Assembly (NCBI GenBank): GCA_938084715.1
Contig: CALKES010000011.1
Location: forward strand, 1 to 60,413
Direction of reading: 5' to 3'
Source: Candidatus Bipolaricaulota bacterium
Lineage (GTDB): Bacteria > Bipolaricaulota > Bipolaricaulia > Bipolaricaulales > Bipolaricaulaceae
Length of the DNA: 60,413 bases
Shown here: positions 14,929 through 30,452 of the stretch, in pieces
How the letters are laid out: the number at the start of each line of letters is the position of its first letter
Position numbering within the stretch: the stretch's first letter is position 1
The notes under the pieces: model-generated
What the model was told of the DNA's origin: nothing
Databases searched by the model: none
What the model saw: only the letters and a program-made list of their open reading frames with translations
Program-made: the position numbers and the translations under genes

Positions 14929-15410
14929 GAGACACCACCTCCTGGGCGTCCCAAGCTCACCTTCACCTTGGCCGGGCGGAGGACGCGCCCGTTGCGGACG
15001 AACCCCCGCTCGTACTCGGCCAGGATCGTGTTCTTCTCACAGTCCGCTTCCTCCCCCCACAGGGCCTCGTGGTAGAGGGGGTCGAAGCTCTTCCCCAGGG
15101 ACTCGTAGGCCTGGCACCCCAGGCGCGCCAGGGACTCCTCCACCAGGCCCTGGAGGCGGAGGAGGCTCTCCCGGAGGGGATCCCCCTCCCCGTGGGCCTC
15201 CAGGGCCCTCCCGAGGGCGTCGTAGACCGGCAGCAGGGCCAGGGCCGCCTCGTCGAGGGCCTTCTCCCGGAGGAGCTCCCGCTCCCGGGCGACGGCCTTT
15301 CGGTAGTTGTCGAACTCCGCGGCCAGGCGCAGGAGCTCCCGCCGGAGCTCCCCCTCCCCGGCCGAACCTTCAACCGACCTCACCGGCTCGTCGTGGCGGT
15401 CCTCGGTCAT
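14925..15410 (-). CDS. grpE: Nucleotide exchange factor GrpE
   Basis: 161 residues. An N-terminal coiled-coil ([19 protein letters not shown]) with the GrpE hallmark FDNYRK, a four-helix part, and a C-terminal beta wing ([17 protein letters not shown]). Its ATG overlaps the hrcA TGA (ATGA) and its TGA overlaps the dnaK GTG. It releases ADP from DnaK. Confidence 0.95.
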
Positions 15411-16515: not shown

Positions 16516-17643
16516 TCAGGACGGAGGTCGGAGGTAGGCTCCGATTCCGTTCTTCCGCAGCTCGACCAGCCCGGGGAACCCCGCAACCACCACAGGGGTG
16601 GCGCGGTTAGCTGCCGAGTAGGTTTCAATGAGCACCTTCAAGGTCTGGAGGTGGCGGCCGACTCGCTCCTCCAGGGGCCAGCCGCGCTCGGTGAACTTCA
16701 CGTACAGCCGGTTTCTCGTTCCAGCCTGGGTATAGAACTTGTCCTGGCCGGTCAGCACGAGGTGGGTGTCGGTCCGGCCCCGCAGCCGTCCCTGGGACGG
16801 GTTGGGAGCTTCGAGGAGAAGGGCCAGGGTGTCCGTGTGATCCCCCCACTCGCGGTGAGAAAGGCCGCGCAGGGTGGCGGGCGACATCTCCACCGCAATG
16901 TCCATTCCTTCCAGTTCAAGGAACATCGCGGCCTTCACCGCCAACTCTAGGGCCCGCGGGTGAGCGACGATGGCGTTGATCACCGGGTACTCAGGGGACG
17001 CTTCGTGGAGGTCGATGGAAAGGGCTGGCTTTTCGATCCGGATGAGCTCCATGATCGCATGGCCCAACCGCTCGGTGGGGTAACCGGTGGGGCTGCCCGG
17101 ATAGGATCGGTTCAGGTTACGGACCTCTGACCCCGTGAGCTGCTGCCCGAGGCGGTTCACGTAGACCACTGGATCCGGCCACTGGTGGACGGGGTTTGTG
17201 GCTCGACTGCCAAACGTGAACTCGCGGGGTCCACCCGGCGTTGGAATGTGGTACACCTGGGGCTGGCCCTCCCCAGGGTCGGTGCAGGTGAACCCGGAGC
17301 GGTTTGCCCGGGGAATTACGATCAGGCGGCCCCGCTGGACCACAGCGTTCTCTACAAGGACCACCGCGGCCAGGAACCCCCCGGGTTCGTTGGGGTGCGT
17401 TCCCCCAAGGACGAGCACCGTTGCCCCAGGGGCCTCCCCCTCAAGGTAGTACACGTCCGTGTCTAGTCCGGTCCCCGCCAGGCTGGGGAAGTAAGCGCTG
17501 AGCTTCCCCACGCGGGTGACTCCAGGTCCGGCGTAGATCGGCCGATCTCGGTGCATATCCAGGAAGGTGAACGCGGAGATCGTCACCACCACAGCGACCA
17601 AGGCGAGGAAACCCGCTCCTGTCACCCACGGTCGAGCGCGCAT
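16516..17643 (-). CDS. Membrane-anchored aspartoacylase/succinylglutamate desuccinylase-like carboxypeptidase
   Basis: 375 residues. An N-terminal signal anchor (about 7-28) places the M14-type zinc domain outside the cytoplasm. Zinc ligands are expected in LGGTHPNEPGG (His and Glu) and a later His, and the motif LSIDLHEASPEYP is present, as in AstE/ASPA-like enzymes that cleave N-acyl amino acids or peptide-like amides. ATG preceded by GGGAGGA. It is the last gene of the leftward pgs locus and a paralogue of the protein at 19.2-20.2 kb (shared GGTHxNE, RGRLIVIPxAN, RNLNRxYPG). A hairpin with arms CGACCTC/GAGGTCG spans the stop codon. A role in trimming exported acyl- or gamma-glutamyl products is inference from neighbours. 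Confidence 0.8.
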   Translation of the reverse strand: MRARPWVTGAGFLALVAVVVTISAFTFLDMHRDRPIYAGPGVTRVGKLSAYFPSLAGTGLDTDVYYLEGEAPGATVLVLGGTHPNEPGGFLAAVVLVENAVVQRGRLIVIPRANRSGFTCTDPGEGQPQVYHIPTPGGPREFTFGSRATNPVHQWPDPVVYVNRLGQQLTGSEVRNLNRSYPGSPTGYPTERLGHAIMELIRIEKPALSIDLHEASPEYPVINAIVAHPRALELAVKAAMFLELEGMDIAVEMSPATLRGLSHREWGDHTDTLALLLEAPNPSQGRLRGRTDTHLVLTGQDKFYTQAGTRNRLYVKFTERGWPLEERVGRHLQTLKVLIETYSAANRATPVVVAGFPGLVELRKNGIGAYLRPPS

Positions 17644-17656
17644 GTTCGGTCCTCCC

Positions 17657-17803
17657 TTACTTGATCATCAACAGCCGCAGCACAAGAGGGACGAGCACCA
17701 TCGCTGCCACCGCCTGCCGCCGGACGCTCTTCTCCCGGAGGAGATCCCATCCCACCAATACGACAAGCATTCCTACGATCAGGCGGTACGACCAGCCGAT
17801 CAT
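17657..17803 (-). CDS. 48-residue membrane protein in the pgs locus
   Basis: Two hydrophobic segments (about 6-20 and 32-46) flank a charged loop (LLREKSVRRQ). Its ATG overlaps the TGA of the DctM-like gene (ATGA), and GGAGGA lies 4 nt upstream, so it is a real, coupled gene. I know no family; it is too short to be a standard DctQ. It could be a minimal partner of the permease. Confidence 0.7.
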   Translation of the reverse strand: MIGWSYRLIVGMLVVLVGWDLLREKSVRRQAVAAMVLVPLVLRLLMIK

Positions 17804-19191
17804 GGCTCCTCCTTCCTTGTCAAGGCTCGCTTCAGCCACTCCAGACCTAGGACGAGCAGGGTCAGACCCAACCCCAGACCGCTCAGAAACAACCCCCGGG
17901 AGAGGGCCGGTGATCGGGTGAGCACTCGCTCGAGGGTAGGAGCCCCCACCAGGGAGGCCACCGCGACCCCGGCTATCAGGAGGGCCGGCACTCCGCACCG
18001 GGCAAGGATCCGCAGGTAGTTCTTCTCCCCCACCACTTGGGCGGCAAACAGGCCAGCGAGCGCGGTGGGCGGTACCAGGTCACCCAAAGAGGCGAACAAG
18101 GAAAGGCTCGAAGCGGTGACAATCACTCCAGCCCCCAAGAGGTTGAGCAGAAAGGGCACCCCGAGGATGGAGGCCGATCCAAAGGCGCTTACCGCACCGA
18201 ACAGGGGCATGCTTACGGCAATGCTCCCATAGAACAAGGAACGGGGTAGTCCGGCGAACGCCTCCACGATCATCCCCCGGGCCCCGGTGAGGGTCATCAC
18301 CTGGATGAACGTCCCCACCCCTACGAGGATGCCAAGGATCGGTAGAGCGTCATGAATTGCTTGGACCGCTGTTTTCACTGGGTTGAACAGGCGTCCACAC
18401 AGGGGGCTTATGGCGTACGCGGCGAGGAAGGCGATGGGGAGACCTAAGGACGGGAACCCCGTGGGAAATGCCCGCTCGGCCACCACAACCCCCACGAAGA
18501 GGAGGAGCGGGAAGTAGAGCCTCAAGCCGTACTCTCGATGGACCGATGGAGGAAGATTCGAGCCCTCACCGAGGCGGCGGATGCCCCGCCACCCAATCCA
18601 CAGGGCGGCAAGGACTGCGGTGGGCACCGTGAGGACAAGGAGAGGAAGGTAGAAACCCTCGTAGGGCATGTCCACCCCACCCCCAATGATCATGACGGGG
18701 ATGTTCACTGGGGGGGCAATCATCCCCAGCAGTCCGGCAATAGCGATGAGGGCGCCTACCCTCGCCTTGTCAAGGCCCATGGTGACAAACACCTGGGCGG
18801 CGATTGCCCCGGTCGTGAGGACCGAAGCCGTGGACGAACCCGTGGCCATCCCCGCCGTCATGGCGAACACCATCATGGCCACAAGGAGCACCGTGGGCCA
18901 GTTCCTCAGGCTCCGGGCAATGTGGTGGGCTACGGTCTCTAGAAGTCCTGAGGCTTGGATCCCCCGCATGAACAGCATCGCACAGGCGATGATCAGGATC
19001 GTATCGAGATAGACAAACGCCCCCTCTACGAGGTGCCGCAGGGGAAATCCCAACCCTGCCACCGCGGCGCCCATGATCGAACCAGCCAACAAGGCCAAGG
19101 CCACCGGCTGGCGAAGGAGAAACACGGTGAGGAGGAACGTCCCCACCATCGCGATGAACACCCACGCCTCAGGGAAAAAAAGGTTTGTCAT
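17800..19191 (-). CDS. TRAP-type (DctM-like) large permease
   Basis: 463 residues, about 11-12 hydrophobic segments. Segment GLLGMIAPPVNIPVMIIGGG matches the conserved DctM substrate-translocation loop, and a second, inverted-repeat half has GDLVPPTALAGLFAAQ. DctM proteins move carboxylates with Na+ with the help of DctQ and a periplasmic DctP; neither is next to it. In its place are a 48-residue membrane protein and two exported aspartoacylase-like enzymes. Uptake of glutamate-like or dicarboxylate products of the neighbouring exported enzymes is inference. Confidence 0.8.
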   Translation of the reverse strand: MTNLFFPEAWVFIAMVGTFLLTVFLLRQPVALALLAGSIMGAAVAGLGFPLRHLVEGAFVYLDTILIIACAMLFMRGIQASGLLETVAHHIARSLRNWPTVLLVAMMVFAMTAGMATGSSTASVLTTGAIAAQVFVTMGLDKARVGALIAIAGLLGMIAPPVNIPVMIIGGGVDMPYEGFYLPLLVLTVPTAVLAALWIGWRGIRRLGEGSNLPPSVHREYGLRLYFPLLLFVGVVVAERAFPTGFPSLGLPIAFLAAYAISPLCGRLFNPVKTAVQAIHDALPILGILVGVGTFIQVMTLTGARGMIVEAFAGLPRSLFYGSIAVSMPLFGAVSAFGSASILGVPFLLNLLGAGVIVTASSLSLFASLGDLVPPTALAGLFAAQVVGEKNYLRILARCGVPALLIAGVAVASLVGAPTLERVLTRSPALSRGLFLSGLGLGLTLLVLGLEWLKRALTRKEEP

Positions 19192-19203
19192 GTGACCGTC
19201 TCC

Positions 19204-20247
19204 TCACCAGTTGAGCCATGCAGAGACGCCGGTTTTGATGATTTCGCGGTAGGTCGGAACCCCGGTCACGACCACCGGTTGTAGTCTCAGCTGGTTTCCA
19301 ATCGCGAGAATTCTCATCGTGAGTTCGAGGTGAATCCCCACCCTCTGTTCGATGGGGTAGTGTGGATCGGCCACCACGTCGGGGGATTCCAGTCCCGGTT
19401 CTTGTCCAGGGTTTGGGGTTTCGATGAGGAATACCAGTGCTGATGTAAGGTCTCCCAGTTCGCGGTGGGACAGGCCCCGGAACTCCTCCCGGGAGGGTTC
19501 GAGCTTCATCCTCACCCCCTCCAGCTCGAGGTCGATGACTGCGATGGCCCCAAGAGCAAGGGCACGGGGATGGCAGACCAGGGTGTGGGCAAGCCTCGAG
19601 CTGGGGCCGGCTTCGTGGAGATCGAACACGTAGTCCACCGTTTCCTTAATGACCAGGCGGGTGATGGCGTACGCGATCTGCTCCGTCAGCGTGCCGCCGG
19701 GAAGCCCGGGGTAGACCCGGTTGAGGTTTCGTGCTTCCTCGCCCGGGAAGGAGAGGCCGGAGGGGTGGACGTAGGTCTCGGGATCGGGGGATTGGAGCGA
19801 GGGGTTGGTGAGGCGCGGCGAGTAGCGGAACGACCGGGCGGCCCCTTCGGGGCCCTGAAGGGTTACCCAGGGACCACAGGAGGCGCACCGGGGATCGGGG
19901 TAGCCGTGGACCGCGTTGTTGGCGTGGGGGATCACGATAAGGCGTCCTTGAACCGGAGTTGCGCGCTCCACAAGCACGATGGAAGCTAAGACCCCGGCGA
20001 TCTCATTGCCGTGGGTTCCCCCCAGCACGAGGGCGGTGCCTCCCGGGACGCCGGAGTCGAGAATGTAGATCCGGGTGTCTCCCGGCGTGCCCCGCAAGGG
20101 GGGGAAGTAGTCGCTGAGCCAAGCTAGATGAGTAATCCCGTACCCAGGACGGACGTCGTGGGTGGCCGGTCCTTGGGCAGTGGCGACGAGGTTCAGGAGG
20201 AGGACGGCCCCCAGGGCCGCCCCCCTCCAGTTTAGTTGCTGCCTCAT
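19204..20247 (-). CDS. Exported aspartoacylase/succinylglutamate desuccinylase-like enzyme
   Basis: 347 residues from the ATG at 20247, 7 nt after the upstream stop codon. Signal peptide (about 1-24, NLVATAQ). The zinc motif LGGTHGNEIAG is the family consensus, followed by RLIVIPHANN, RNLNRVYPG and YVFDLHEAGP. It ends 12 nt before the DctM-like start. Family members hydrolyse N-acyl amides of acidic amino acids, so an acidic amide or peptide product of the pgs/GGT enzymes is a plausible substrate. A frame extension to 20376 is rejected because it lies inside the upstream gene. Confidence 0.82.
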   Translation of the reverse strand: MRQQLNWRGAALGAVLLLNLVATAQGPATHDVRPGYGITHLAWLSDYFPPLRGTPGDTRIYILDSGVPGGTALVLGGTHGNEIAGVLASIVLVERATPVQGRLIVIPHANNAVHGYPDPRCASCGPWVTLQGPEGAARSFRYSPRLTNPSLQSPDPETYVHPSGLSFPGEEARNLNRVYPGLPGGTLTEQIAYAITRLVIKETVDYVFDLHEAGPSSRLAHTLVCHPRALALGAIAVIDLELEGVRMKLEPSREEFRGLSHRELGDLTSALVFLIETPNPGQEPGLESPDVVADPHYPIEQRVGIHLELTMRILAIGNQLRLQPVVVTGVPTYREIIKTGVSAWLNW

Positions 20248-20254
20248 GAGGTGT

Positions 20255-21271
20255 TCACCGCCACAAGCTGAACAGGTCGACCATGACCTCCGCCGCTTCC
20301 GCCGTCGCGGTGATCGTGCGGAGGGGGAGCCCATGTGCCTGGCACAACGTAGTGAAGAGTCCGTCCGCGTTTCCATCCGCCTTGACCACGACGTAGTCAG
20401 CCTGCGGGGTGAACTCGGTGATCAGCGCATCGCTCAGCGCTCCCCGGCGGGGCTCTCCCTCGATGTGCATAACGACGACCGCCAGGCCCTGGCGGCGGGC
20501 CTCGGCAATCAGAGCGCGTCCCCGGGCTAATTCGTCATCCAGCGAGATCCCCGCTGCTCCCAGGCCCTTGGAACTGGCCCCGAGGACGAGGATCAGGGTC
20601 TGTACGCTGCGGAGGTCACTGGGTTGCGCCCCTTCGATGTAGTCGTGGACCAGGCCTGCCCGTTCGGCAAGGACCTTGGCCATAAGTCCTCCAGGGCTCC
20701 GTCCCAGTGAGGTGATCAGGACGGGCCCAGCAAAGGAGCTTGCGTGGAACTGGCTGAACGCTGCCTGGCCGCGCACCGCGACTCCGGCCGCTCCGAGCAT
20801 GGTTTCCCATGCAGGGTCGGCAGCCTCCAGGACTGGGTTTCCGTTCACAAGCACCCGCGCTTTGCTTCCGGAGAAAGCAAGGGTGAGCGTGGCGGGGAAG
20901 GTCGAGGCTATCGCCTGGTTCCAGGTCCTCTCGAGGCCACCGGTGCGCGTGACGAGCAGAACCCCCGCGTTCATGATCCGAACCTCAACCCAGTTGTTTT
21001 CATCTTGGTATTTCGCTACTACCGCAGCCCATTCACCGGCGAGGGAGGCGATGGTCGCCTCCACGCGCCGACCGGCACCGACCTGGACGGGGAACAAAAC
21101 GCGTCCGTTTTCACCTCTGAGCTGGCCGTCGGCTACTTGCCACGTTCCTGTAGCGGCGGCCCAAGAGGGCTCTGTTCCTGAGCTGAAACCCACGTTGAAC
21201 ACTGGGCCCGCGACCCCTACCAGTGCCGCAACAAACACCAACAGCACAATGGTCAGCACTCTCCTATCCAC
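20255..21271 (-). CDS. Exported two-domain protein: concanavalin-like domain plus DUF6305-like domain
   Basis: 338 residues from the GTG at 21271, which has AGGAGG 6 nt upstream. Signal anchor (residues about 5-24). About 30-190 reads as a beta-sandwich (WAAATGTWQVADGQLRGENG, NNWVEVRIMNAGVLLVTRTG), the style of ConA/LamG-like domains. About 190-338 is an alpha/beta domain (LITSLGRSPGGLMAKVLAER, VQTLILVLGASSKGLGAAGI), which I would match tentatively to DUF6305; no catalytic motif is evident. It sits between a GGT and an aspartoacylase gene. Possibly a binding protein for the exported substrate. Confidence 0.6.
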   Translation of the reverse strand: MDRRVLTIVLLVFVAALVGVAGPVFNVGFSSGTEPSWAAATGTWQVADGQLRGENGRVLFPVQVGAGRRVEATIASLAGEWAAVVAKYQDENNWVEVRIMNAGVLLVTRTGGLERTWNQAIASTFPATLTLAFSGSKARVLVNGNPVLEAADPAWETMLGAAGVAVRGQAAFSQFHASSFAGPVLITSLGRSPGGLMAKVLAERAGLVHDYIEGAQPSDLRSVQTLILVLGASSKGLGAAGISLDDELARGRALIAEARRQGLAVVVMHIEGEPRRGALSDALITEFTPQADYVVVKADGNADGLFTTLCQAHGLPLRTITATAEAAEVMVDLFSLWR

Positions 21272-21323
21272 AGCACGCCTCCTTTCTTCCAAGCCTTCCG
21301 ACTTCGTCTATCGCACGGCGGCT

Positions 21324-23033
21324 TTACGGTCCCGCGGCCCCGCCTAGGCGTCGAACGTCGGCTACACCGATCATCGTTCCGTCGGCGAGGACCATCACGG
21401 CGTTCGTCCCTCCGAAGTACAGGTCGAGGGGACCGTACTCTTTGATCGCGTGGCCCAACGTCTTCAGGACTTCGATGGTTCCTACCGAGAACCCCCCTTC
21501 GATCTCAAGGTTTGCCACTGCGTTCCGGCTGTAGAACTTCGGTGCGGTGATGGCTTCTTCAAGATTCAGGCAGAAGTCCACGACGGCGACGATGGTCTGG
21601 ACCACGACGCCGGGGATTCGCCCTGCCCCCGGGGTGCCGACCACGAGGAACACCTCACCGCGGTCCAGCAAGATGGTTGGGGCAATGACAGTGCGGGGGC
21701 GCTTGTAGGGTTCGGCCACGTTCCGGTCATCGGGACGATCCGCCCGGTACAGGTTGAAGTTCTGGTACTGGTTGTTCAGAAGAAATCCGTAGCCGGGGAC
21801 TGCAACCCGGCTTCCCCAGAACGAGCTCAGGGTTTGGGTTAGGCTGACCGCGTTTCCGTGCTTATCCACTACGCTGATGTGGGTGGTGCAGCCCGCATCG
21901 GCCTCCGCTCCCACTCCGACCGGGAGGGCGGTGGAGTTGAATTGCCAGGGATCTCCCACGGGCACCCTGGCGGGGGGGATGACCTTGTCGAGGGCGATGA
22001 GCTTGGCCCGTTCTGCGGCAAATTTCTTCGAGGTCAGCCCGGTTACCGGTACCTCGTAGAAGTCCGGGTCCCACACCACGGGGTCACGGTCAGCAAACGC
22101 CAGCTTCAGCGCCTCGGCGATGATGTGAACCACCGTGGGATGGTCATAGCGACCGTACCGGGACAAGTTGAAGTTCTCGATGATGTTCAAGGCCTCCACG
22201 ACCACCACCCCGGCAACGATCGGGGGGGCGCTGAGGATCTCGTAGCCCCGGTAGGTGCCCCGTACAGGCTCCCGGACCACAGCCCGGTAGGCAGCCAGGT
22301 CCGCCTTGGTGATCCAGCCCTCAGTGGCGGCGACAATGGCATCGGCTATCTCCCCTGTGTAGAACACCTCCGCCCCCTCCTCGGCGATCAGCCGAAGGGC
22401 ATAGGCAAGCTTCGGGTTGGTGATCCGCTGGCCGACATCGGGGGCCAACCCGTTGGGGAGGAACAGAGCTCCCGCCTCAGCATACTTTGGATCGGACAGG
22501 TCCTTGAAGGCGTCGAGCACCCGACGGACGTACACCTCGTCGGCGGGGAAGCCCCCCTCGGCCAGCTCAATTGCTGGGGCCAGCACCTCAGCCAGGGTCA
22601 TCGTCCCGTACTCACGGAGCACAAGGTCCATCGCAGCCACAGCGCCAGGGATGCACACGGACTGTGGACCGTAGGTGGCCCGGGAGGTCTGGGGGGTCAC
22701 GTGGCCCGGCGCCCAGGCCCGAAAATCCACCGCCACCTGGGTCCCGTCGGCAAGGGCCAGAATCATGTACCCCTCCCCTCCCAAGCCCGAGGCATAGGGT
22801 TCGACCACGCCGAGGGCGAACGACATGGCAACCGCCGCGTCCACAGCGTTGCCTCCCCGAGCGAGAACCTGGGCTCCGACCATCGCAGCAAAGGGGTGGG
22901 CGCACGCCACCATCCCCTCTTTGCCCACGGCCACTTGGCCTGGAAGAGCAGCTGTGGTTTGGGTAAAGACCGGTAGCCCGATCGCTAGAAGCGCTGCGGC
23001 TACGCCTAGGAGTACCGAGAACTTCTGTTTCAT
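21324..23033 (-). CDS. ggt: Exported gamma-glutamyltransferase (GGT/CapD superfamily), copy 1
   Basis: 569 residues from the ATG behind AAGGAGGG. Signal peptide (about 1-25). Large-subunit features: GGNAVDAAVAMSFALGVVEP, GLGGEGYM and VDFRAWAPG (the Arg binds the glutamate alpha-carboxylate in known enzymes). The autoprocessing nucleophile is expected at Thr383 in GCTTHISVVD, followed by the small subunit (GFLLNNQYQNF). GGTs cleave gamma-glutamyl amide bonds; CapD members cut or ligate poly-gamma-glutamate. Next to pgsBCW the latter is attractive, but family level alone cannot decide. Confidence 0.93.
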   Translation of the reverse strand: MKQKFSVLLGVAAALLAIGLPVFTQTTAALPGQVAVGKEGMVACAHPFAAMVGAQVLARGGNAVDAAVAMSFALGVVEPYASGLGGEGYMILALADGTQVAVDFRAWAPGHVTPQTSRATYGPQSVCIPGAVAAMDLVLREYGTMTLAEVLAPAIELAEGGFPADEVYVRRVLDAFKDLSDPKYAEAGALFLPNGLAPDVGQRITNPKLAYALRLIAEEGAEVFYTGEIADAIVAATEGWITKADLAAYRAVVREPVRGTYRGYEILSAPPIVAGVVVVEALNIIENFNLSRYGRYDHPTVVHIIAEALKLAFADRDPVVWDPDFYEVPVTGLTSKKFAAERAKLIALDKVIPPARVPVGDPWQFNSTALPVGVGAEADAGCTTHISVVDKHGNAVSLTQTLSSFWGSRVAVPGYGFLLNNQYQNFNLYRADRPDDRNVAEPYKRPRTVIAPTILLDRGEVFLVVGTPGAGRIPGVVVQTIVAVVDFCLNLEEAITAPKFYSRNAVANLEIEGGFSVGTIEVLKTLGHAIKEYGPLDLYFGGTNAVMVLADGTMIGVADVRRLGGAAGP

Positions 23034-23122
23034 GGCGATCCCTCCTTGCATCCGGAGGTCAGGAAGCGGGGGTACCTCCCCCGCTTTCCGACCTCATTCA
23101 ATCAGCTTGGCCGCCGCCCATG

Positions 23123-24826
23123 CTAGTACCCGACGGCCACCCCAAGACGGCGTGAGTCAGCCCCACCGTACATGATCCCCGCGTCGGGGTCGAACAGGAT
23201 CCCCTGAGCGGTGCCGAACGTGCCACTCTTGTCGGCGCCTGTGAGCTTGTGCCCGAGCCGCTCCAGCCCGGCCAGAACCGCGGGATCGATGCCCCGCTCG
23301 TAGAACAAGTTCCCGGTTGCCAGCTGGTAGATTCGAAGCTGCTCGATAGCCTCGTCCATCTTCATCCCGTGGTCGACTACGTTCATGATGATCTGCGCAA
23401 GCGCGGTGATGATCCGCGTGGCCCCCGCGGAACCTACCGCCATGAACGGACGGCCCTTCGGGTCGAGAACGAGGGTGGGCGACATGGAGGACAGGGGGCG
23501 CTTCCCCGGCTCGGGAGCGTTCACGCTCGCGGGGTCCTTGGAGAAGTCGTCCATCTCGTTGTTGAGCATGATCCCATACGCAGGCACAAAGACGCCGCTT
23601 CCAAAGAAGTAGTTAATCGTGTTCGTGGAGGCCACGATGTTCCCCGCCGCATCCACCACCGAGAAGGAGCTCGTGGAGGTGACTTCGCTGCCCAACCCGC
23701 CCATCCATTCCGGTATAGCCTCAGACTTGGGCTCGTATGCCCAGGGGTTTCCGGGGTTGACCGAGGCGGCGGCCTGGGTGAGGTCGATCTTGCATGCCAG
23801 CTCACGGGCGTAAGCCTTGGAGGTCAGGCCGGCAAGGGGCACCTGGGCGAACGCGGTATCCGCCATGTACTTGCCGCGATCAGCGAACACGAGCTTCATC
23901 GCCTCAGCCATGATGTGGAGGGCCACGGTGGAGTTGTGCCCTAGCTCCCGGATGGGGAAGTACTCCAGGATGTTCAGGAGCTGGATGATGTGGGTGCCCC
24001 CGCTGGAGGCCGGAGGCACGGAGTAGATTTGGTAGCCGCGGTATGTTCCGTACACGGGTTGACGCTCCACCACCTGGTAGGAGCGGAGGTCCTCCATGGT
24101 CATCGCCCCGCCCGCCTTGTTCACTGCGGCCACGATCGCCTCCCCGATGGGGCCATCGTAGAACACCTTCGGGCCGTGTTCCGCGATGAGGCGGAACGTC
24201 TGGGCCAAGGCTGGCTGCTTGAGAACTCGACCCGCCTCGATGGGCAAGCCGTTTTCGAGGTAGGGAAGCAACGAGGCATCCGTATAGCGGAGCATCTTCT
24301 GCAGGTTGTCGGAGATGATCCCTGTCTGCATGGGGTGGACCACGAAGCCCTCTTCAGCGAGACGAATCGCCGGGGCCGCGACCTCCGCGAAGGACATCGT
24401 GCCGTACTTTTCCAAGGCGGTCCACATTCCAAGGAGCCAGCCCGGGACGCCCACCGACATGCCCCCGAGAACGGACCACCGCTCGGTCCGGGCTTGGTCC
24501 GAGGCGTACATGTCCTTCGTGGCCGAGGCCGGGGCAACCTCGCGGTAGTCGAGGACGATTACTTTGCCGGTGGAAGCGAGGTAGATGGTCATAAACCCGC
24601 CCCCGCCGATTCCTGACGCGTTGGGCTCGACCACGTTCAGAGCGAGCGCGGTGGCCACCGCCGCGTCCACTGCGTTTCCACCCTTCTGAAGGATCTCCAC
24701 CCCGGCTTGGGAGGCCAACTCGTGCGCCGAGGCCACCATCCCCTGTCGGGCAATCACTTCCTGACCCGAGGAGGCAATCCCCCCTGCGATCAGGAGACCC
24801 ACTGCGAACGCCAGCGCCTGTTTCAC
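23123..24826 (-). CDS. ggt: Exported gamma-glutamyltransferase (GGT/CapD superfamily), copy 2
   Basis: 567 residues. GTG at 24826 is 7 nt after AGGAGGT; the frame opens three codons earlier. Signal peptide (about 1-20). Motifs: GGNAVDAAVATALALNVVEP, GIGGGGFMT, LDYREVAP (substrate Arg95) and the nucleophile Thr385 in TSTSSFSVVD, where copy 1 has TTHISVVD. Small subunit has GIMLNNEMDDF. The two copies differ a lot in sequence, so they are old paralogues or separately acquired, perhaps for synthesis-linked release and for full breakdown. Confidence 0.92.
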   Translation of the reverse strand: MKQALAFAVGLLIAGGIASSGQEVIARQGMVASAHELASQAGVEILQKGGNAVDAAVATALALNVVEPNASGIGGGGFMTIYLASTGKVIVLDYREVAPASATKDMYASDQARTERWSVLGGMSVGVPGWLLGMWTALEKYGTMSFAEVAAPAIRLAEEGFVVHPMQTGIISDNLQKMLRYTDASLLPYLENGLPIEAGRVLKQPALAQTFRLIAEHGPKVFYDGPIGEAIVAAVNKAGGAMTMEDLRSYQVVERQPVYGTYRGYQIYSVPPASSGGTHIIQLLNILEYFPIRELGHNSTVALHIMAEAMKLVFADRGKYMADTAFAQVPLAGLTSKAYARELACKIDLTQAAASVNPGNPWAYEPKSEAIPEWMGGLGSEVTSTSSFSVVDAAGNIVASTNTINYFFGSGVFVPAYGIMLNNEMDDFSKDPASVNAPEPGKRPLSSMSPTLVLDPKGRPFMAVGSAGATRIITALAQIIMNVVDHGMKMDEAIEQLRIYQLATGNLFYERGIDPAVLAGLERLGHKLTGADKSGTFGTAQGILFDPDAGIMYGGADSRRLGVAVGY

Positions 24827-24851
24827 CTCAACCACCTCCTGATGAGCCGTA

Positions 24852-26057
24852 TTATAGCGATCCCCTCGGTTTTCTGCGGGAACCCAGCCGAACCCTGGGG
24901 TTGACTACGAGGGTGAACAGGGCTGCCGTCACCACCAGCCCCAGGTAGAGGCCGGCCACGAGGAGGAAGGCCGAGCTTCGGTTTCCCGCTGCGGTTGCGA
25001 AGGGTGTGCCCTCGCCCGCCCTTGGGAGAGGGGAGGGGTCCCAGGGCAGTCCGTACCGGGCAGCAAGCCCACGGAGGTTGAGGAGGTGGAGGACGGGGAT
25101 GCCCCGCCGCAACATGTGCAAGCTGACGCCCTCCTCCGGGTCTGGTGGGGAGGAGGAGAGGTAAAGGTTGAGGCCTGGTTGGAGGGCGAGGGCAGTAGCG
25201 GTTTCCCCGAGATCAGCCCACGCCCCTCCGATCCCTACGAACGCGGCGATCCGACGGCCCCCGGCATGCAGATCGTAGATGCGGAGGCGCTCCACTACGT
25301 TGCTCTCCAGATCGGGCTGGTATATGAAATGTGCTCCCCGCGCCTCGATCGAAGCGACGAGTTGCTCCCGTAGTTCTGCGTTGAGTTCCAGCGCTACGTC
25401 CCGGTCGCCTCCCAGGGACACGGCCACGGCGCGGTGCCCCTCGGGAAAAACGCCTCTACTCACCAGGCAATCTTCCATGGCAAGCCAGGTGAATCGGGGG
25501 TCATTTGCTCCCCATTGCGAGGCCCCAAGGGAGCAGATTAGGATGGGGTGGAGGTCAAGGGCGTAGGTTGCGGCGAGCACAGCGAGGATGAGTGCAGGGA
25601 ACGATCCTGAAGCTCCAATGGCGATGGTATCTCCTGGTTGCGCCCCCGCCTCCACCAAGATCTGCACGAGGAGAGCCGCTATGTTGGGGTTGGTTGACGT
25701 GCGCTTGGCTGCCAAGTCTCCCAGCGTGGTGGTAAGGGGAGAGAACGGGAGGCCGATGAGCCCGGTGACGTTCACATCGTCGGGGCTGAGCTGAACCCCT
25801 TGGGCTGTCCGGCAATCTAGAACTGCGGCCGTGGCCTCGGCCATCAGTCGTGCCGCTGTCAGCATCGGGCTCCGCAGGCTGTTGGCCCCGTGATGGGTTG
25901 CACGTTGGGCAGCCACGTAGGCCCCGACGCTCAGCCCGGCGAGGAGGGCAAGAACGACAAACTCGACTCCCCACTGTTGGCGCGCACCAACGTGCTCTGG
26001 TTTCCGTAGGGGCCCCCGAAAACCTATGGGGCTAGGATAAGCCGAACGAGGAACCAC
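24852..26057 (-). CDS. pgsW: Poly-gamma-glutamate system protein PgsW
   Basis: About 401 residues. One N-terminal membrane segment (VEFVVLALLAGLSVGAYVAA), a large outer domain with DTIAIGASGSFPALILAVL and DLHPILICSLGASQWGAND, and a C-terminal membrane segment (FLLVAGLYLGLVVTAALF). This matches what I know of the poly-gamma-glutamate system protein family found next to pgsB/pgsC. The start is uncertain: no ATG is available, and the best codon is GTG at 26057, overlapping pgsC by 34 nt without a clear ribosome binding site. Biochemical role unknown; it may replace PgsA/CapA in export. Confidence 0.75.
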   Translation of the reverse strand: MVPRSAYPSPIGFRGPLRKPEHVGARQQWGVEFVVLALLAGLSVGAYVAAQRATHHGANSLRSPMLTAARLMAEATAAVLDCRTAQGVQLSPDDVNVTGLIGLPFSPLTTTLGDLAAKRTSTNPNIAALLVQILVEAGAQPGDTIAIGASGSFPALILAVLAATYALDLHPILICSLGASQWGANDPRFTWLAMEDCLVSRGVFPEGHRAVAVSLGGDRDVALELNAELREQLVASIEARGAHFIYQPDLESNVVERLRIYDLHAGGRRIAAFVGIGGAWADLGETATALALQPGLNLYLSSSPPDPEEGVSLHMLRRGIPVLHLLNLRGLAARYGLPWDPSPLPRAGEGTPFATAAGNRSSAFLLVAGLYLGLVVTAALFTLVVNPRVRLGSRRKPRGSL

Positions 26058-26458
26058 GTTATCACACTGGCTGTGGCAGTTCCAAGAACAGTAATTGCCA
26101 CGCCTTGGCGTTCGAAGGAGTTGGCCAGAAGCCCTGGGATGACCCAGCCAATGGTCCGTAGCTGGACAGCGGTGGGCCAGAGTCCTGGCAGGAGGCGGTA
26201 GCCGATCGCTCCCAGTGCGGCACCGAGGGTCACGAGCAGGACGAACCTCCGGCGGCCGAAGAGGATGAGGAAGCGGGAGAGAAAGAGGTAGCCTCCCCAG
26301 GCGGCAAGGGCCACGGCCAACGTCCCCACGAGGCGCAAAGGCTGGTCCAGGTGCAGGGCCACGTAGGCCGGAACGACCAGACCCCCCGGATAGAACCCGG
26401 TCACCTCGGCAAACAAAGCTGCGATGCCAATCCCTACGACAAGGAACTCCACAGACAT
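26024..26458 (-). CDS. pgsC: Poly-gamma-glutamate biosynthesis protein PgsC/CapC
   Basis: 144 residues (family about 149), four or five membrane segments. The start MSVEFLVVGIGIAALFAEVT and the early motif GFYPGGLVVPAYVALHLDQP are characteristic of CapC. ATG has GGGGGAG 6 nt upstream and overlaps pgsB by 25 nt. PgsC forms the membrane part of the amide-ligase complex with PgsB. Confidence 0.92.
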   Translation of the reverse strand: MSVEFLVVGIGIAALFAEVTGFYPGGLVVPAYVALHLDQPLRLVGTLAVALAAWGGYLFLSRFLILFGRRRFVLLVTLGAALGAIGYRLLPGLWPTAVQLRTIGWVIPGLLANSFERQGVAITVLGTATASVITWFLVRLILAP

Positions 26459-27642
26459 TGTGGCTCCCCCACGTTCTCCCAATGCTCGACGAGGACTCCT
26501 CCCACCCCGCCGATGTTTCCAAACCCAAACAGTACGCCTCCGTCTGGGGCAAAACGTCGCCCAGCGCGGAAGATGTCGGAGGGCTCCCGCACCCGGACCG
26601 CCTCCACCCGGTCTTTGTAGCGGCTTCGGGCTCGGCGTACTAGGGAGGCAGGGCGGTCTCCTACCACGAGGAGAAAGTCGAGCGGAGGGCCTTCCCGTGA
26701 GGCCAAGAGTTTGCTCCATTGGCCAGTGCGGTCCCCCCGATCTCCCCGGAGGTTGAGGACCCCCCCGATGGGTAGCCCGCGGCAGAGGGGCGCGTCTTGC
26801 ACACGATGGAGGATGGAGAGTGTCGAGACTGGATCGTTGGCAGCAAACGCGTTGATCACGATCCACTCTCTGTCTTCCTCCGTAATCCGCCACGCCCGTA
26901 GGGCACCGAAATCTCCACGAACTCTTGCCATGCCTCGCCCAGCAACCGCTGCCGGGACCCCTGCCGCTTCACACACGGCCAGGGCCAGACGAACGTTGTT
27001 CGTCCACTCGGCATAGGGAACGGTAAGCCCAGCTAGCTCGCTCCGATAAGCGTTGGGATCCACCGCCGTGACCTGGGAAGCGCGCTGGGGCAACAACTTC
27101 GTCGCGCTCTCTGGCCAGGTGCCCTGGAGGTAAACCACATGCGTGCCCGCAGGGACTCCTTGCATGAACGTGCGCGCCGCCTGTTCGGGGGAGGAGCCAA
27201 GGTCGGCCACGTGGTCGGGGCGCACGTTCGTGAGGGCAAGGATGTGGGGCCGGAGCAGGTGGCCCAGCTCCACTGCATAGTTTTCGGGGCGGATGCTCAT
27301 CACCTCGACCACGAGGGCGTTGGCCCCAGCCCGCCGGGCCATGGCGAGGATGTGTCGCTGCTCAAGGATCGAAGGGAGGCCGCGACGGAGGAGAAGACGC
27401 TCCTCCCCCGAAGGGAGGAGGACTGCTGCCCGGGACCCGGTGGTCTTGGCCAAGGGCCGCTTGTTGCCAGCGGCCAGACCGGCAGCAACCAGGCGCGTGA
27501 CGCTCGACTTTCCCCGGGTCCCCGCCACGGCGATGCGCAGAGGGATAGCTTGTTGGTTTGCCCTTACCCAGACCCTCTCAACCCCGAGCAAGGCGAGGGC
27601 GATTCCCACTCCGCCCAGGGGGATGAGCAGTTCCGGGGTCAT
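26434..27642 (-). CDS. pgsB: Poly-gamma-glutamate synthase PgsB/CapB
   Basis: 402 residues (family about 393). An N-terminal membrane segment is followed by the Mur-ligase-like P-loop AVAGTRGKSSVTRLVAAGLA, then VVEVMSIRPENY and LTNVRPDHVADLG, all conserved in CapB. This ATP-dependent ligase joins glutamates through the gamma-carboxyl. It starts only 5 nt after the secA stop with no ribosome binding site, so translation is probably coupled to secA. Confidence 0.93.
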   Translation of the reverse strand: MTPELLIPLGGVGIALALLGVERVWVRANQQAIPLRIAVAGTRGKSSVTRLVAAGLAAGNKRPLAKTTGSRAAVLLPSGEERLLLRRGLPSILEQRHILAMARRAGANALVVEVMSIRPENYAVELGHLLRPHILALTNVRPDHVADLGSSPEQAARTFMQGVPAGTHVVYLQGTWPESATKLLPQRASQVTAVDPNAYRSELAGLTVPYAEWTNNVRLALAVCEAAGVPAAVAGRGMARVRGDFGALRAWRITEEDREWIVINAFAANDPVSTLSILHRVQDAPLCRGLPIGGVLNLRGDRGDRTGQWSKLLASREGPPLDFLLVVGDRPASLVRRARSRYKDRVEAVRVREPSDIFRAGRRFAPDGGVLFGFGNIGGVGGVLVEHWENVGEPQCLWSSLS

Positions 27643-27647
27643 GGGGA

Positions 27648-30407
27648 TCAGCGGCCGTGGCAGTGCTTGTACTTCTTCCCCGACCCGCACGGGCAGGGGT
27701 CGTTCCGGCCCACGGCTTGGGCGGGCTTGGAGGGACCCGTCCCGGAGCGGGGGGCTGCGGCGGCGGTCGTGCCCGTCGAGCTCGCCGCCCCGGCGGTCAC
27801 GGGAACGCGCGTGGCCACGGGACGGCCGTCCCCTGCTTCCGCCCGGACGGAGAGCCGCGGGCTCAGGAGGAACCGCAGCGCCTCCTCCTCCGCCCGGAGG
27901 ACCATCTCCTGGAAGATCCGGTGGGCCTCCCGCTTGAACTCGATCAGGGGGTCCGTCCCCCCGTAGGCCCGCAGCCCAATCCCCTCCCGGAGCTCGTCGA
28001 GCTCCAACAGGTGCTGGCGCCAGTTCTCGTCGATCGTCCGGAGGAGGACGATCCGGCAGATCAGGGGGTAGTGGGGGGAGAGCCGCTCCCACTGGGAGGA
28101 GAGCTGCCCCTGGAGGAGCTCCGCCACGAGATCGGCCAGGGCCTCCCGCCTCTGGGGGAGCTCGGGGACCTCGGGGAGGAGCTGGCTGAGCTCCCGCCGC
28201 AGCCCGGGGAGGTCCCACCCCTCGGGGGACGGTCCCGGGGCGTAGCGCTCCAGGAGGAGCTCCCCGAACTCACTTGCCATCTCCTCCAGGTGCTCGCGGA
28301 GGGCCGCGTCGTCGGGGGTCTCCCCCTCCTCGGGGAGGAGGAACCGCTCCCGGAGGGCGTACATGGCCTCGCGTTGTTTCGCCATGATCTCGTCGTACTC
28401 CAGGAGCCGCTTCCGGATCTCGAAGTTCCGCTCTTCAACCCTTTTTTGGGCCCTCCGGATCGAGCGGGTGAGGAGGTCGTGGGTGATCGCCTCCCCCTCC
28501 TTCACCCCGAGCTTCTCCATGAGCGAGCTCAGCCGCTCCCCGCCGAAGACGCGGAGGAGGTCGTCCTCGAGGGAGAGGAAGAACTGGCTTGTCCCGGGGT
28601 CGCCCTGGCGGCCGCAGCGGCCCCCGAGCTGGTCGTCGATCCGGCGGGCCTCGTGGCGCTGGAACCCCAGGACGGCGAGGCCCCCCTCCATGACCTCCCA
28701 CTCCTCGGGCCTAAACGGCCGCCCGACCTCGGCGCACCAGTCCTTGATCTTGGCCAGGGCCCGCTTGACGTAGGCGGGATCCTCCGCCTTCCGAACGATC
28801 TTCTCCCGCTCCGCGGCCGCCTCGGCCCGGTACCGGGCGAGGAGCTCCCGGTACTTCTCCGGCTCCGCCTCCGGGTCGGCCTCGGCCCGGGCCCGGAACT
28901 CGGGGTTCCCCCCGAGGAGGATGTCCGTCCCCCGGCCGGCCATGTTCGTGGCGATCGTGATCGCCCCGGCCCGGCCGGCCTGGGCGATGATCGCCGCCTC
29001 CTTCTCGTGGTACTTGGCGTTCAGGACCTGGTGGGGGAGGCCCCGCTTCTTGAGGAGCCGCGAGAGGTCCTCCGAGTCCTCGATCGAGGTCGTCCCGATC
29101 AAGACCGGCCGGCCCTCCCGGTGGAGCCGCTCCACCTCGTCGGCCACGGCCTCGAACTTCCCCTTCTTCGTCCGGTAGATCACGTCCGGAAGCTGCTCCC
29201 GAATGAGGGGCCGGTTCGTGGGGATCTGGACGACCTCCAGCCCGTAGATCTCCTTGAACTCCTCCTCCTCGGTCTTCGCCGTCCCCGTCATCCCGGCCAG
29301 GCCCCGGTACAGCCGGAAGTAGTGCTGGAGGGTGATCTGGGCCAGGGTCTGGTTTTCGCGCTGGACGGGGAGGCCCTCTTTGGCCTCGATGGCCTGGTGG
29401 AGGCCGCCCGAGTAGCGGCGGTCGGGCATGAGCCGGCCGGTGAACTCGTCGACGATGATCACCCGGCCGTCCTTCACGATGTACTCCCGGTCCCGGTGGA
29501 AGAAGACCCTCGCTCGGAGGGCCGTCTCGAGGTGGTAGCGGGCGGTGGTGGCCCGGGGGTCGGCGATGTTGTCAAACTTCAGGATCCCCTCGGCCTTCCG
29601 CCACCCCTGTTCGGTCAGGGACAGCCGCTTGTGGGCCTCGTCCACCTCGAAGTCCTCCCCCTCCTTGAAGAGCTTGGCGATCCGGGCGAACTCCCGGTAC
29701 TGGCGGGCGGTGTCGGCGGTGGGGCCGGAGATGATGAGGGGGGTTCGGGCCTCGTCGATCAAGATGTTGTCGATCTCGTCCACGATCGCGTAGTCCAGCG
29801 GCCCCTGGACCATCTGGGACCGGGAGACGACCATGTGGTCCCGGAGGTAGTCGAACCCGAACTGGGCGTTGGTCCCGTAGACGATGTCGCAGGCGTAGGC
29901 GGCCCGGCGCTCCTCGGGGGGGGTGGTCTCCTGGAGGAGGCCGACGGTGAGGCCGAGGGACTCGTAGACGGGGCCCATCCAGTTCCGGTCCCGCTTGGCG
30001 AGGTAATCGTTGACGGTGACGATGTGGACCTTGCCGGCGAGGGCGTTCAAGTAGGCAGGCATGGTGGCGACGAGGGTCTTGCCCTCCCCGGTCTTCATCT
30101 CGGCGATCATCCGCCGGTGGAGGACGATCCCCCCCATCACCTGGACGTCGTAGGGCCGCAGCCCGATCGTCCGGGCGGCGGCCTCCCGAACGCAGGCGAA
30201 CGCCTCGGGGAGGAGGTCATCGAGGGACTCCCCCGCCTGGAGGCGCCCTCGGAACTCGTCCGTCTTCGCCCGGAGCTCCCCGTCGGAGAGGGCGGCGACC
30301 CTCTCCCCCCAGGCGTTCACCTCGGCAACCACCGGGAGGAGCCGGCGGAGGCGCTGCTCGTTCGTCTGGCCGAACAGGAACTCGATCCCCCGGCGGAGAA
30401 AAGGCAT
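27648..30407 (-). CDS. secA: Preprotein translocase ATPase SecA
   Basis: 919 residues. Start MPFLRRGIEFLFGQTNEQRL; Walker A MKTGEGKTLVATMPAYLNAL; DEAD-like VDEIDNILIDEARTPLI; motif GMTGTAKTEEEEF; GRGTDILLGG; helical scaffold; flexible linker rich in Ala/Thr/Pro; and a C-terminal SEC-C zinc site (CPCGSGKKYKHCHGR). It drives post-translational export through SecYEG. No ribosome binding site: a TTGCGG-N17-TATAGT promoter ends 9 nt before ATG, so the mRNA is nearly leaderless. The pgs genes follow on the same strand. Confidence 0.98.
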   Translation of the reverse strand: MPFLRRGIEFLFGQTNEQRLRRLLPVVAEVNAWGERVAALSDGELRAKTDEFRGRLQAGESLDDLLPEAFACVREAAARTIGLRPYDVQVMGGIVLHRRMIAEMKTGEGKTLVATMPAYLNALAGKVHIVTVNDYLAKRDRNWMGPVYESLGLTVGLLQETTPPEERRAAYACDIVYGTNAQFGFDYLRDHMVVSRSQMVQGPLDYAIVDEIDNILIDEARTPLIISGPTADTARQYREFARIAKLFKEGEDFEVDEAHKRLSLTEQGWRKAEGILKFDNIADPRATTARYHLETALRARVFFHRDREYIVKDGRVIIVDEFTGRLMPDRRYSGGLHQAIEAKEGLPVQRENQTLAQITLQHYFRLYRGLAGMTGTAKTEEEEFKEIYGLEVVQIPTNRPLIREQLPDVIYRTKKGKFEAVADEVERLHREGRPVLIGTTSIEDSEDLSRLLKKRGLPHQVLNAKYHEKEAAIIAQAGRAGAITIATNMAGRGTDILLGGNPEFRARAEADPEAEPEKYRELLARYRAEAAAEREKIVRKAEDPAYVKRALAKIKDWCAEVGRPFRPEEWEVMEGGLAVLGFQRHEARRIDDQLGGRCGRQGDPGTSQFFLSLEDDLLRVFGGERLSSLMEKLGVKEGEAITHDLLTRSIRRAQKRVEERNFEIRKRLLEYDEIMAKQREAMYALRERFLLPEEGETPDDAALREHLEEMASEFGELLLERYAPGPSPEGWDLPGLRRELSQLLPEVPELPQRREALADLVAELLQGQLSSQWERLSPHYPLICRIVLLRTIDENWRQHLLELDELREGIGLRAYGGTDPLIEFKREAHRIFQEMVLRAEEEALRFLLSPRLSVRAEAGDGRPVATRVPVTAGAASSTGTTAAAAPRSGTGPSKPAQAVGRNDPCPCGSGKKYKHCHGR

Positions 30408-30416
30408 GGGGAGAGC

Positions 30417-30445
30417 ACTATACGCCCCCCTCCCCCTGCCCGCAA
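30417..30445 (-). promoter_or_regulatory. secA promoter
   Basis: TTGCGG (30445-30440), 17-nt spacer, TATAGT (30422-30417), then 9 nt to ATG. Initiation would fall 0-3 nt before the start codon. Confidence 0.75.
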
Positions 30446-30452
30446 GGACCAC

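What the first reader, a model, noticed from the sequence alone, without database searches (positions are those of the whole stretch)
16516..27642. A pgsB-pgsC-pgsW locus with two GGTs, two aspartoacylase-like enzymes and a DctM-type permease, without pgsA
Ten genes in one direction combine a membrane amide-ligase (PgsB/PgsC), PgsW, two exported gamma-glutamyltransferases, a ConA/DUF6305-like exported protein, two exported aspartoacylase-like metalloenzymes, a DctM-like permease and a 48-residue membrane protein. Gaps are tiny or negative. Known capsule operons use PgsA/CapA and one CapD; here the order reads like make, export, cut, deacylate and re-import. One reading is a secreted gamma-glutamyl polymer or storage/osmolyte cycle. 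Another is a different N-acyl or gamma-linked product. The gene families are established; the cycle is inference.
Basis: partly seen in the sequence, partly recalled or inferred. Interest (0 to 1): 0.85.

Follow-up and report, generated by a model that had tools for sequence, protein, structure and literature searches.

The report
Polyglutamate-type synthase with built-in salvage operon
This bacterium carries a cassette of ten genes that probably makes a glutamate-like chain, sends it out of the cell, cuts it up and takes the pieces back in; the same plan recurs in very distant bacteria, but no paper I could search describes it.

Summary
Ten co-directional genes (window 27642 down to 16516) encode PgsB, PgsC, PgsW, two exported GGTs, an exported DUF6305 protein, two exported AstE-like Zn enzymes, a permease and a 48-aa membrane protein. 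No pgsA/CapA homologue was found in the 96%-complete genome.

The locus is a discrete cassette between secA and the hrcA promoter. Eight congeners lacking it have secA next to hrcA.

Its core, PgsB-PgsC-PgsW plus an exported peptidase/amidase, DUF6305, permease, 48-aa protein and AstE, recurs in Bacillota, Fusobacteriota, Aminicenantota, Bipolaricaulota and others. Two GGTs and two AstEs are a lineage variant; most relatives carry a C69 or M28 peptidase instead. Permease type follows hydrolase type across phyla, whereas synthase type does not. So the cassette is a synthase joined to an interchangeable cut-and-recapture module. The two GGTs differ: GGT1 has a canonical, lid-less pocket like Bacillus PGA-degrading GGTs; GGT2 has a conserved altered pocket.

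Best reading: a PgsA-independent gamma-glutamyl-polymer synthase with its own depolymerisation and salvage system (confidence 0.5). The product, the deacylation step and the direction of transport are inferred. New variant of a known kind.

The parts
26434..27642 (-). PgsB, Mur-ligase-type amide ligase, 402 aa, N-terminal TM, P-loop GTRGKSS
   Evidence: TIGR04012 245.6 bits above cutoff 222.7; PF08245
26024..26458 (-). PgsC, 144-aa integral membrane protein, 4 hydrophobic segments
   Evidence: TIGR04011 and PF14102 above cutoffs; hydropathy
24852..26057 (-). PgsW, TM-anchored at both ends, alpha/beta core; start codon uncertain (GTG 26057)
   Evidence: TIGR04332 309 bits, cutoff 100; AF2 pLDDT 91.8; no PDB fold match with E<=0.001
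23123..24835 (-). GGT1, exported, canonical gamma-glutamyl pocket (R114, T391, N411, D433, S462/S463 equivalents), no lid loop
   Evidence: PF01019/TIGR00066; best solved relative 4y23, T388 aligns with residue 1 of small subunits; residue table
21324..23051 (-). GGT2, exported, catalytic Thr389 kept, altered pocket (N411S, D433N, S462T, S463V equivalents)
   Evidence: same signature in orthologues L057, L058, L100, L101, L105, L108, L109; partly in L110 and L104
20255..21271 (-). Exported protein: unidentified N-terminal domain plus DUF6305 domain (about residues 183-334), proposed extracytoplasmic ligand-binding protein
   Evidence: PF19823 156 bits; AF2 pLDDT 94.5, Rossmann-like
19204..20247 (-). 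AstE1, exported AstE/AspA-like Zn enzyme (ATG 20376 start rejected in favour of 20247, which begins a signal peptide)
   Evidence: PF24827 41.7 bits; Zn ligands and catalytic Glu conserved
17800..19191 (-). 12-segment permease distantly related to DctM/DcuC/CitMHS/Na-H antiporter families
   Evidence: GGT-linked clade of the permease tree
17657..17803 (-). S48, 48-aa two-TM protein with conserved C-terminal P-x-x-LR-x-x-x-(L/I)-K, next to the permease
   Evidence: 44 ORFs; purifying selection
16516..17643 (-). AstE2, membrane-anchored exported AstE/AspA-like Zn enzyme
   Evidence: PF24827 25.3 bits, at cutoff 25; invariant H83/E86/H213/E278
27648..30452 (-). secA, upstream flank of the cassette (not part of the system)
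   Evidence: Pfam SecA domains; adjacent to hrcA in 8 congeners lacking the cassette
15407..16426 (-). hrcA, downstream flank, preceded by a promoter-like site TTGAAC-16-TATCAT at 16484-16457 that is also in the empty site of G011
   Evidence: PF01628

Best explanation
A PgsA-independent gamma-glutamyl-polymer synthase (PgsB ligase + PgsC membrane subunit + PgsW) operonic with a matched extracytoplasmic cut-and-recapture module. Proposed working: PgsB/PgsC make and extrude a gamma-linked glutamate chain; PgsW, anchored at both ends in the membrane, takes the helper place of PgsA. Outside, GGT1 removes amino-terminal glutamates; GGT2, whose pocket has lost the residues that read a free alpha-amino group, cuts where that group is not free (internal bonds or capped ends). 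The AstE-like Zn enzymes trim the carboxyl end or remaining amide bonds. DUF6305 captures the released amino acid or oligomer and hands it to the permease plus S48 for uptake. Shown here: gene content, conservation, module exchange, active-site residues, insertion site. Inferred: that the product is poly-gamma-glutamate, each enzyme's substrate, PgsW's role, and inward transport.
For: Family assignments above cutoff for PgsB, PgsC, PgsW, GGTs, DUF6305. Conserved neighbourhood: 42 of 80 PgsW loci have permease + AstE near the synthase, in the order DUF6305-permease-S48-AstE wherever DUF6305 adjoins the permease (the window's phylum adds an AstE in GGT modules); Cetobacterium has the same set. 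In the window's phylum PgsW and DUF6305 each occur in 10 of 100 genomes and coincide in 8 (Fisher p = 1e-8). Permease tree: the 11 GGT-linked permeases (plus 2 of unknown hydrolase) separate from the C69/M28-linked ones at 100/100, across phyla, and one genome (G010, L100) holds one permease of each type beside the matching hydrolase; the synthase tree does not follow this label (138 of 500 shuffles as low). GGT1 is lid-less and its best solved match is 4y23, a Bacillus-type GGT; lid-less GGTs are linked to PGA degradation and B. subtilis GGT is an exo-gamma-PGA hydrolase (PMC8062742). E. coli GGT D433N loses transpeptidation but keeps hydrolysis (PMC8062742), as GGT2's Asn would predict. pgsBC without pgsA suffices for PGA in B. 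subtilis (PMC6029982). DUF6305 also sits beside solute-binding protein, sensor-kinase and ABC-importer genes in PgsW-less Clostridiales. A related Acetothermia organism is a peptide/amino-acid fermenter (PMC6092417).
Against: No product or substrate data. C69 and M28 peptidases, which stand in for GGT in most relatives, are not gamma-glutamyl-specific, so the product might not be gamma-PGA in all cases. The permease has no confident family and no solved relative. DUF6305 occurs without PgsW in three Clostridiales genomes, so it is not polymer-specific. 10 of 33 long PgsW loci have no permease nearby. Neither GGT has been shown to act on a polymer.
Confidence: 0.5

Rival explanations
1. Same machinery, different product: PgsB/PgsC/PgsW make another exported amide (for example glutamate linked to another amine, or an N-capped oligomer), and GGT2 plus the AstE enzymes remove the cap or acyl group; a secreted N-acyl or mixed gamma-glutamyl compound rather than gamma-PGA.
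For: GGT2's conserved pocket signature resembles class IV cephalosporin acylases, which have Asn at the D433 position and act on glutaryl groups (PMC8062742); AstE's best profile matches among solved structures are N-acetyl-diaminobutyrate deacetylase and succinylglutamate desuccinylase/aspartoacylase-like proteins; relatives use non-gamma-specific C69/M28 peptidases.
Against: PgsB and PgsC pass equivalog cutoffs for poly-gamma-glutamate enzymes; GGT1 keeps a fully canonical gamma-glutamyl pocket.
Confidence: 0.25
2. Envelope or capsule polymer locus: GGTs act like CapD to attach and trim a gamma-glutamyl polymer on the envelope; AstE and permease serve turnover or export rather than recapture.
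For: GGT family includes CapD (one search lists CapD structures among matches); GGT1 has the residues needed for transpeptidation.
Against: GGT is missing from most PgsW loci (6 of 80 hold one), so anchoring by GGT cannot be the general function; GGT2 has Asn at the position whose D-to-N change abolishes transpeptidation in E. coli GGT (PMC8062742); hydrolase and permease co-vary, which an anchoring role does not predict.
Confidence: 0.13
3. Mainly a scavenging operon for exogenous peptides or gamma-glutamyl compounds (DUF6305-permease-S48-AstE-hydrolase), to which the synthase is only loosely tied.
For: The module stands alone or apart from PgsBCW in several Bipolaricaulota contigs (L103, L105, L108, L110); DUF6305 with the same kind of sensor kinase is used by PgsW-less Clostridiales next to ABC importers; one genome, G027, has the module but no PgsW detected.
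Against: PgsW and DUF6305 co-occur in 8 of 10 carriers in the phylum and the exceptions are incomplete MAGs; physical linkage to PgsBCW recurs across phyla with both module types.
Confidence: 0.1

Closest known systems
Bacillus PgsBCA(E) gamma-PGA synthase with secreted GGT and PgdS
   Same: PgsB and PgsC families; exported GGT that degrades PGA from the amino end; extracellular polymer that can be re-used as nutrient (PMC8062742)
   Different: No PgsA anywhere in the genome; PgsW instead; depolymerases, a permease, DUF6305 and S48 are built into the same operon; extra AstE-like Zn enzymes; second, divergent GGT
NCBI 'poly-gamma-glutamate system protein' (pgsW, TIGR04332) loci, e.g. Cetobacterium somerae plasmid p1
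   Same: pgsB-pgsC-pgsW plus ggt, DUF6305, TRAP-like large permease, 47-aa protein and AstE-like gene, the non-synthase genes in the same order
   Different: Window has GGT2 of the altered-pocket type, an extra AstE1, an N-terminal extension on DUF6305 and no two-component system; synthase first in the operon
CapD (GGT-family capsule enzyme)
   Same: GGT fold and catalytic Thr; works on a poly-gamma-glutamate product
   Different: GGT1 scores higher against secreted Bacillus-type GGT; GGT2 carries the Asn that removes transpeptidation in E. coli GGT; no capsule evidence
PghP/PghL gamma-PGA hydrolases
   Same: Carboxypeptidase-like Zn enzymes (PMC6506827); the AstE enzymes share a His/Glu/His Zn site and a catalytic Glu of that superfamily
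   Different: AstE1/AstE2 belong to the AstE/AspA family, are exported or membrane-anchored and are larger; substrate unknown
TRAP transporters (DctP-DctQ-DctM)
   Same: Large permease with weak DctM similarity, a small membrane partner and a secreted partner encoded together
   Different: Permease below the DctM cutoff; no DctP or DctQ; DUF6305 and the 48-aa protein are unrelated families

Membership tests
Bacillus-type PgsBCA poly-gamma-glutamate synthase | PgsB amide ligase | tested here: met
   TIGR04012 245.6 bits, cutoff 222.7
Bacillus-type PgsBCA poly-gamma-glutamate synthase | PgsC membrane subunit | tested here: met
   TIGR04011 100.4 bits, cutoff 96.45; PF14102
Bacillus-type PgsBCA poly-gamma-glutamate synthase | PgsA/CapA (PF09587) | tested here: not met
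   No match in whole genome, controls positive; not filed as a PgsBCA member
Bacillus-type PgsBCA poly-gamma-glutamate synthase | Product is poly-gamma-glutamate | not testable with these tools
   needs chemistry
PgsW-type system (TIGR04332) | PgsW next to PgsB and PgsC | tested here: met
   TIGR04332 309 bits; adjacency
Gamma-glutamyltransferase (GGT1) | Catalytic Thr and gamma-Glu-binding residues | tested here: met
   T388 plus R114/N411/D433/S462/S463 equivalents
Gamma-glutamyltransferase (GGT2) | Canonical gamma-Glu-binding residues | tested here: not met
   Family PF01019 and catalytic Thr met, but N411S, D433N, S462T, S463V: GGT fold, altered substrate pocket
AstE/AspA deacylases | Family profile and Zn-site residues | tested here: met
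   PF24827: AstE1 clear, AstE2 marginal; Zn ligands, NR motif, catalytic Glu invariant
AstE/AspA deacylases | Acts on N-acyl amino acids | not testable with these tools
   substrate unknown
TRAP transporter | DctM large subunit above cutoff | tested here: not met
   18.6 bits, cutoff 23.8
TRAP transporter | DctP and DctQ partners in the cassette | tested here: not met
   No such family among the cassette's proteins
CapD-type capsule anchoring | Transpeptidation of polymer onto envelope | not testable with these tools
   needs biochemistry

The most novel reading that the evidence does not exclude
The locus is one of a widespread, undescribed class of closed extracellular polyamide cycles: a PgsA-free synthase plus interchangeable cut-and-recapture modules built on a new kind of uptake system (DUF6305 receptor, IT-type permease, 48-aa subunit), letting anaerobic amino-acid fermenters bank glutamate outside the cell and reclaim it.
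Probability: 0.3. Interest if true: 0.8.

Novelty: new variant of a known kind. Interest (0 to 1): 0.62.

Why it matters
Poly-gamma-glutamate is studied almost only in Bacillus, with PgsA as a standard part. This cassette suggests that distant, mostly uncultured anaerobes use a PgsA-free version wired to its own degradation and uptake genes. It gives testable functions to three unassigned families (PgsW, DUF6305, the 48-aa protein) and to a conserved class of altered-pocket GGTs, and it makes concrete a question that PGA studies leave open: what the polymer is for outside Bacillus.

Tried and rejected
PgsW and DUF6305 as homologues: rejected (hhalign probability 2.5%). Function of PgsW or DUF6305 from fold: no PDB match with E<=0.001 for PgsW; DUF6305 matches (PfkB, SGNH hydrolases, designed scaffolds) have query TM-scores of about 0.5 or less, so no function is claimed. 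Solved relatives of the permease and of the N-terminal 'ConA' region: none convincing. CapA among neighbours of PgsW loci: not in the 25 commonest families of 80 neighbouring proteins, although most PgsW genomes tested hold a CapA-like gene somewhere, so 'no pgsA in the genome' is true of this genome but not a rule. Guess that two GGTs define the system: rejected. DUF6600 (PF20245) as a handle: wrong family, nothing found. Literature: 'pgsW' and 'DUF6305' gave no relevant paper; the Cloacimonadota PGA paper concerns a CapBCA operon. Whether Fusobacterium nucleatum, reported to make polyglutamate (Candela 2009, cited in PMC3815933), uses a PgsW-type locus could not be checked.
Full report
Observation. 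PgsB, PgsC and PgsW pass NCBIfam cutoffs, both GGTs pass PF01019, and DUF6305 is unmistakable. The 'DctM' label is weaker than stated (below the Pfam cutoff), and the 'ConA' part is not supported by any family or solved structure. Hydropathy and N-terminal sequence indicate exported or membrane-anchored GGTs, DUF6305 and AstEs, a 12-segment permease and a two-segment 48-aa protein. No pgsA/CapA was found in the genome, while the same search is positive in 7 of 14 control genomes. The only promoter-like match in the region, on either strand, lies after AstE2, in front of hrcA; this is a consensus match, weak but in keeping with one transcript.

The cassette is a discrete unit. Of twelve members of the genus including the window, eight have secA followed directly by hrcA (for example 73 nt apart in the closest relative, G011), while the window, G010 and G002 have the cassette there; G008's contigs are too short to tell. 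The sequence before hrcA, including its TTGAAC/TATCAT-like promoter, is the same in the empty site of G011 and after AstE2 in the window, and pgsB starts 5 nt after the secA stop. So an 11-kb cassette is gained or lost between the secA stop codon and the hrcA promoter. Presence in the phylum is patchy: PgsW in 10 of 100 genomes.

What is conserved. One scan of GTDB genomes with a PgsW profile gave 80 loci; with a Cetobacterium plasmid and whole-genome hits these were annotated with profiles built here. The recurrent unit is PgsB-PgsC-PgsW plus an exported hydrolase, DUF6305, permease, S48 and AstE; DUF6305-permease-S48-AstE keeps that order wherever the genes are contiguous, except that GGT-type modules of the window's phylum have an extra AstE between DUF6305 and the permease. 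42 of 80 loci hold permease and AstE; of 33 loci of 18 kb or more, 23 hold the permease. NCBI names of MAGs are rough, but cultured or complete carriers confirm wide spread: Clostridium tetanomorphum, C. pascui, Sedimentibacter saalensis, Flavonifractor, Cetobacterium, and closed Aminicenantes and Gemmatimonadota chromosomes. The exported hydrolase is GGT in 6 of 80 loci, C69 peptidase in 24 and M28 in 21 (some loci hold two kinds). Two GGTs and two AstEs are therefore a lineage variant.

Two modules. G010 carries secA-PgsB-PgsC-PgsW-C69-C69-DUF6305-permease-S48-AstE followed by GGT1-GGT2-DUF6305-AstE-permease-S48-AstE and hrcA; G002 has a matching set on two contigs. The window holds the synthase directly followed by the second (GGT) module. 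The window's permease is 83-84% identical to the GGT-module permeases of its congeners but 31% to their C69-module permease, while its synthase is 67% identical to theirs. Either the C69 module was lost in the window or it was gained in the others. The GGT module also stands away from PgsBCW in G092, G089, G059 and G053.

Permease follows hydrolase, synthase does not. In the permease tree all 11 GGT-linked rows, plus two with no known hydrolase, lie on one side of a 100/100 branch and all C69/M28-linked rows on the other; the GGT side spans Bipolaricaulota, Fusobacteriota and Bacillota. The one GGT row from a halophile (L065) is a long branch. In the concatenated PgsBCW tree the GGT label is scattered (5 changes; 138 of 500 shuffles as low), and the window groups with C69-linked relatives at 100/100. 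The simplest reading is that what the hydrolase releases is what the permease carries, and that one synthase type can be paired with either module. This is the strongest evidence for recapture; it is indirect.

The two GGTs. Aligned with E. coli GGT, GGT1 keeps the equivalents of R114, T391, N411, D433, S462 and S463 and, like its best solved match 4y23, has a short lid region. Lid-less GGTs are the ones linked to PGA hydrolysis, and B. subtilis GGT is an amino-terminal exo-hydrolase of PGA (PMC8062742). GGT2 keeps the catalytic Thr but has S, N, T, V at the N411, D433, S462, S463 positions; the same set recurs in orthologues from other families of the phylum. In E. coli GGT, D433N abolishes transpeptidation, keeps about 82% of hydrolysis and gives glutaryl-acylase activity; class IV cephalosporin acylases carry Asn there (PMC8062742). 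I infer that GGT2 hydrolyses gamma-acyl substrates without a free alpha-amino group, for example internal bonds or capped ends.

AstE. Both copies keep the His/Glu/His Zn site, the Asn-Arg pair and the catalytic Glu that are invariant in 31 rows; solved relatives are AstE/AspA-like deacylases. PghP/PghL, true gamma-PGA hydrolases, are also carboxypeptidase-like Zn enzymes (PMC6506827, PMC4497714), so polymer trimming and deacylation are both open.

DUF6305, S48, PgsW. DUF6305 is a compact alpha/beta domain with no convincing solved relative. In Halanaerobiales-like loci (L065, L074) a second copy sits beside a sensor kinase, and in three PgsW-less Clostridiales genomes DUF6305 lies between a family-5 solute-binding protein and a related sensor kinase, response regulator and ABC importer. 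A ligand-binding role outside the cell is the best inference. In that order DUF6305 occurred in 5 of 227 genomes above cutoff and PgsW in 2, both of which have DUF6305. S48 is a conserved family next to the permease, so probably a permease subunit. PgsW is modelled with high confidence as a core with a membrane helix at each end and has no PDB fold match. PgsBC alone can make L-rich PGA in B. subtilis when pgsA is absent (PMC6029982), so lack of pgsA does not argue against PGA.

Limits. Product, substrates and transport direction are not shown. MAG contigs are short and incomplete, the genome scan used a single peptide pattern with the best 80 of 134 loci kept, hydrolase labels come from neighbourhood, and several GGT-clade rows are close relatives. 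Confidence that this is one conserved functional unit: about 0.95. That it makes, cuts and recaptures a gamma-glutamyl polymer: about 0.5.

Noticed in passing
L129 9267-15019, L130, L131 (Clostridiales genomes G116, G115, G227): DUF6305 without PgsW, between an SBP_bac_5 protein and a sensor kinase/response regulator, followed by a DUF3798 lipoprotein and an ABC importer; looks like a peptide or amino-acid sensing-uptake operon.
   Followed up: partly
L038 13696-14274, L022 14138-15568, L051 4991-5602 and other Aminicenantes loci: A conserved protein of about 192 residues (one TM, no Pfam match) beside the permease in Aminicenantes PgsW loci; sometimes two copies.
   Followed up: no
L038 14404-16488, L022 5893-8193: Exported M28 peptidases sit in or beside Aminicenantes PgsW loci where other lineages have GGT or C69.
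   Followed up: partly
L057 10731-11426; L011 1-410: Mutator-type transposase next to pgsW in a Bipolaricaulota contig and an IS6 transposase beside the Cetobacterium locus, fitting the patchy spread of the cassette.
   Followed up: no
L066 7582-8301, L079 7669-8421: Clostridium tetanomorphum and C. pascui have an extra short AstE-like gene (about 240-250 aa) directly before pgsB.
   Followed up: no
L012 (titled Thermotoga sp.) and L042 (titled Candidatus Atribacteria): Both records match genomes placed in the window's own genus or class (G002, G059), so their public organism labels look wrong.
   Followed up: partly
window 20777-21271: N-terminal domain of about 165 residues on the DUF6305 protein, absent from most relatives (their DUF6305 proteins are about 200 aa; longer forms in L100, L101, L110), with no family or structure match.
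   Followed up: partly
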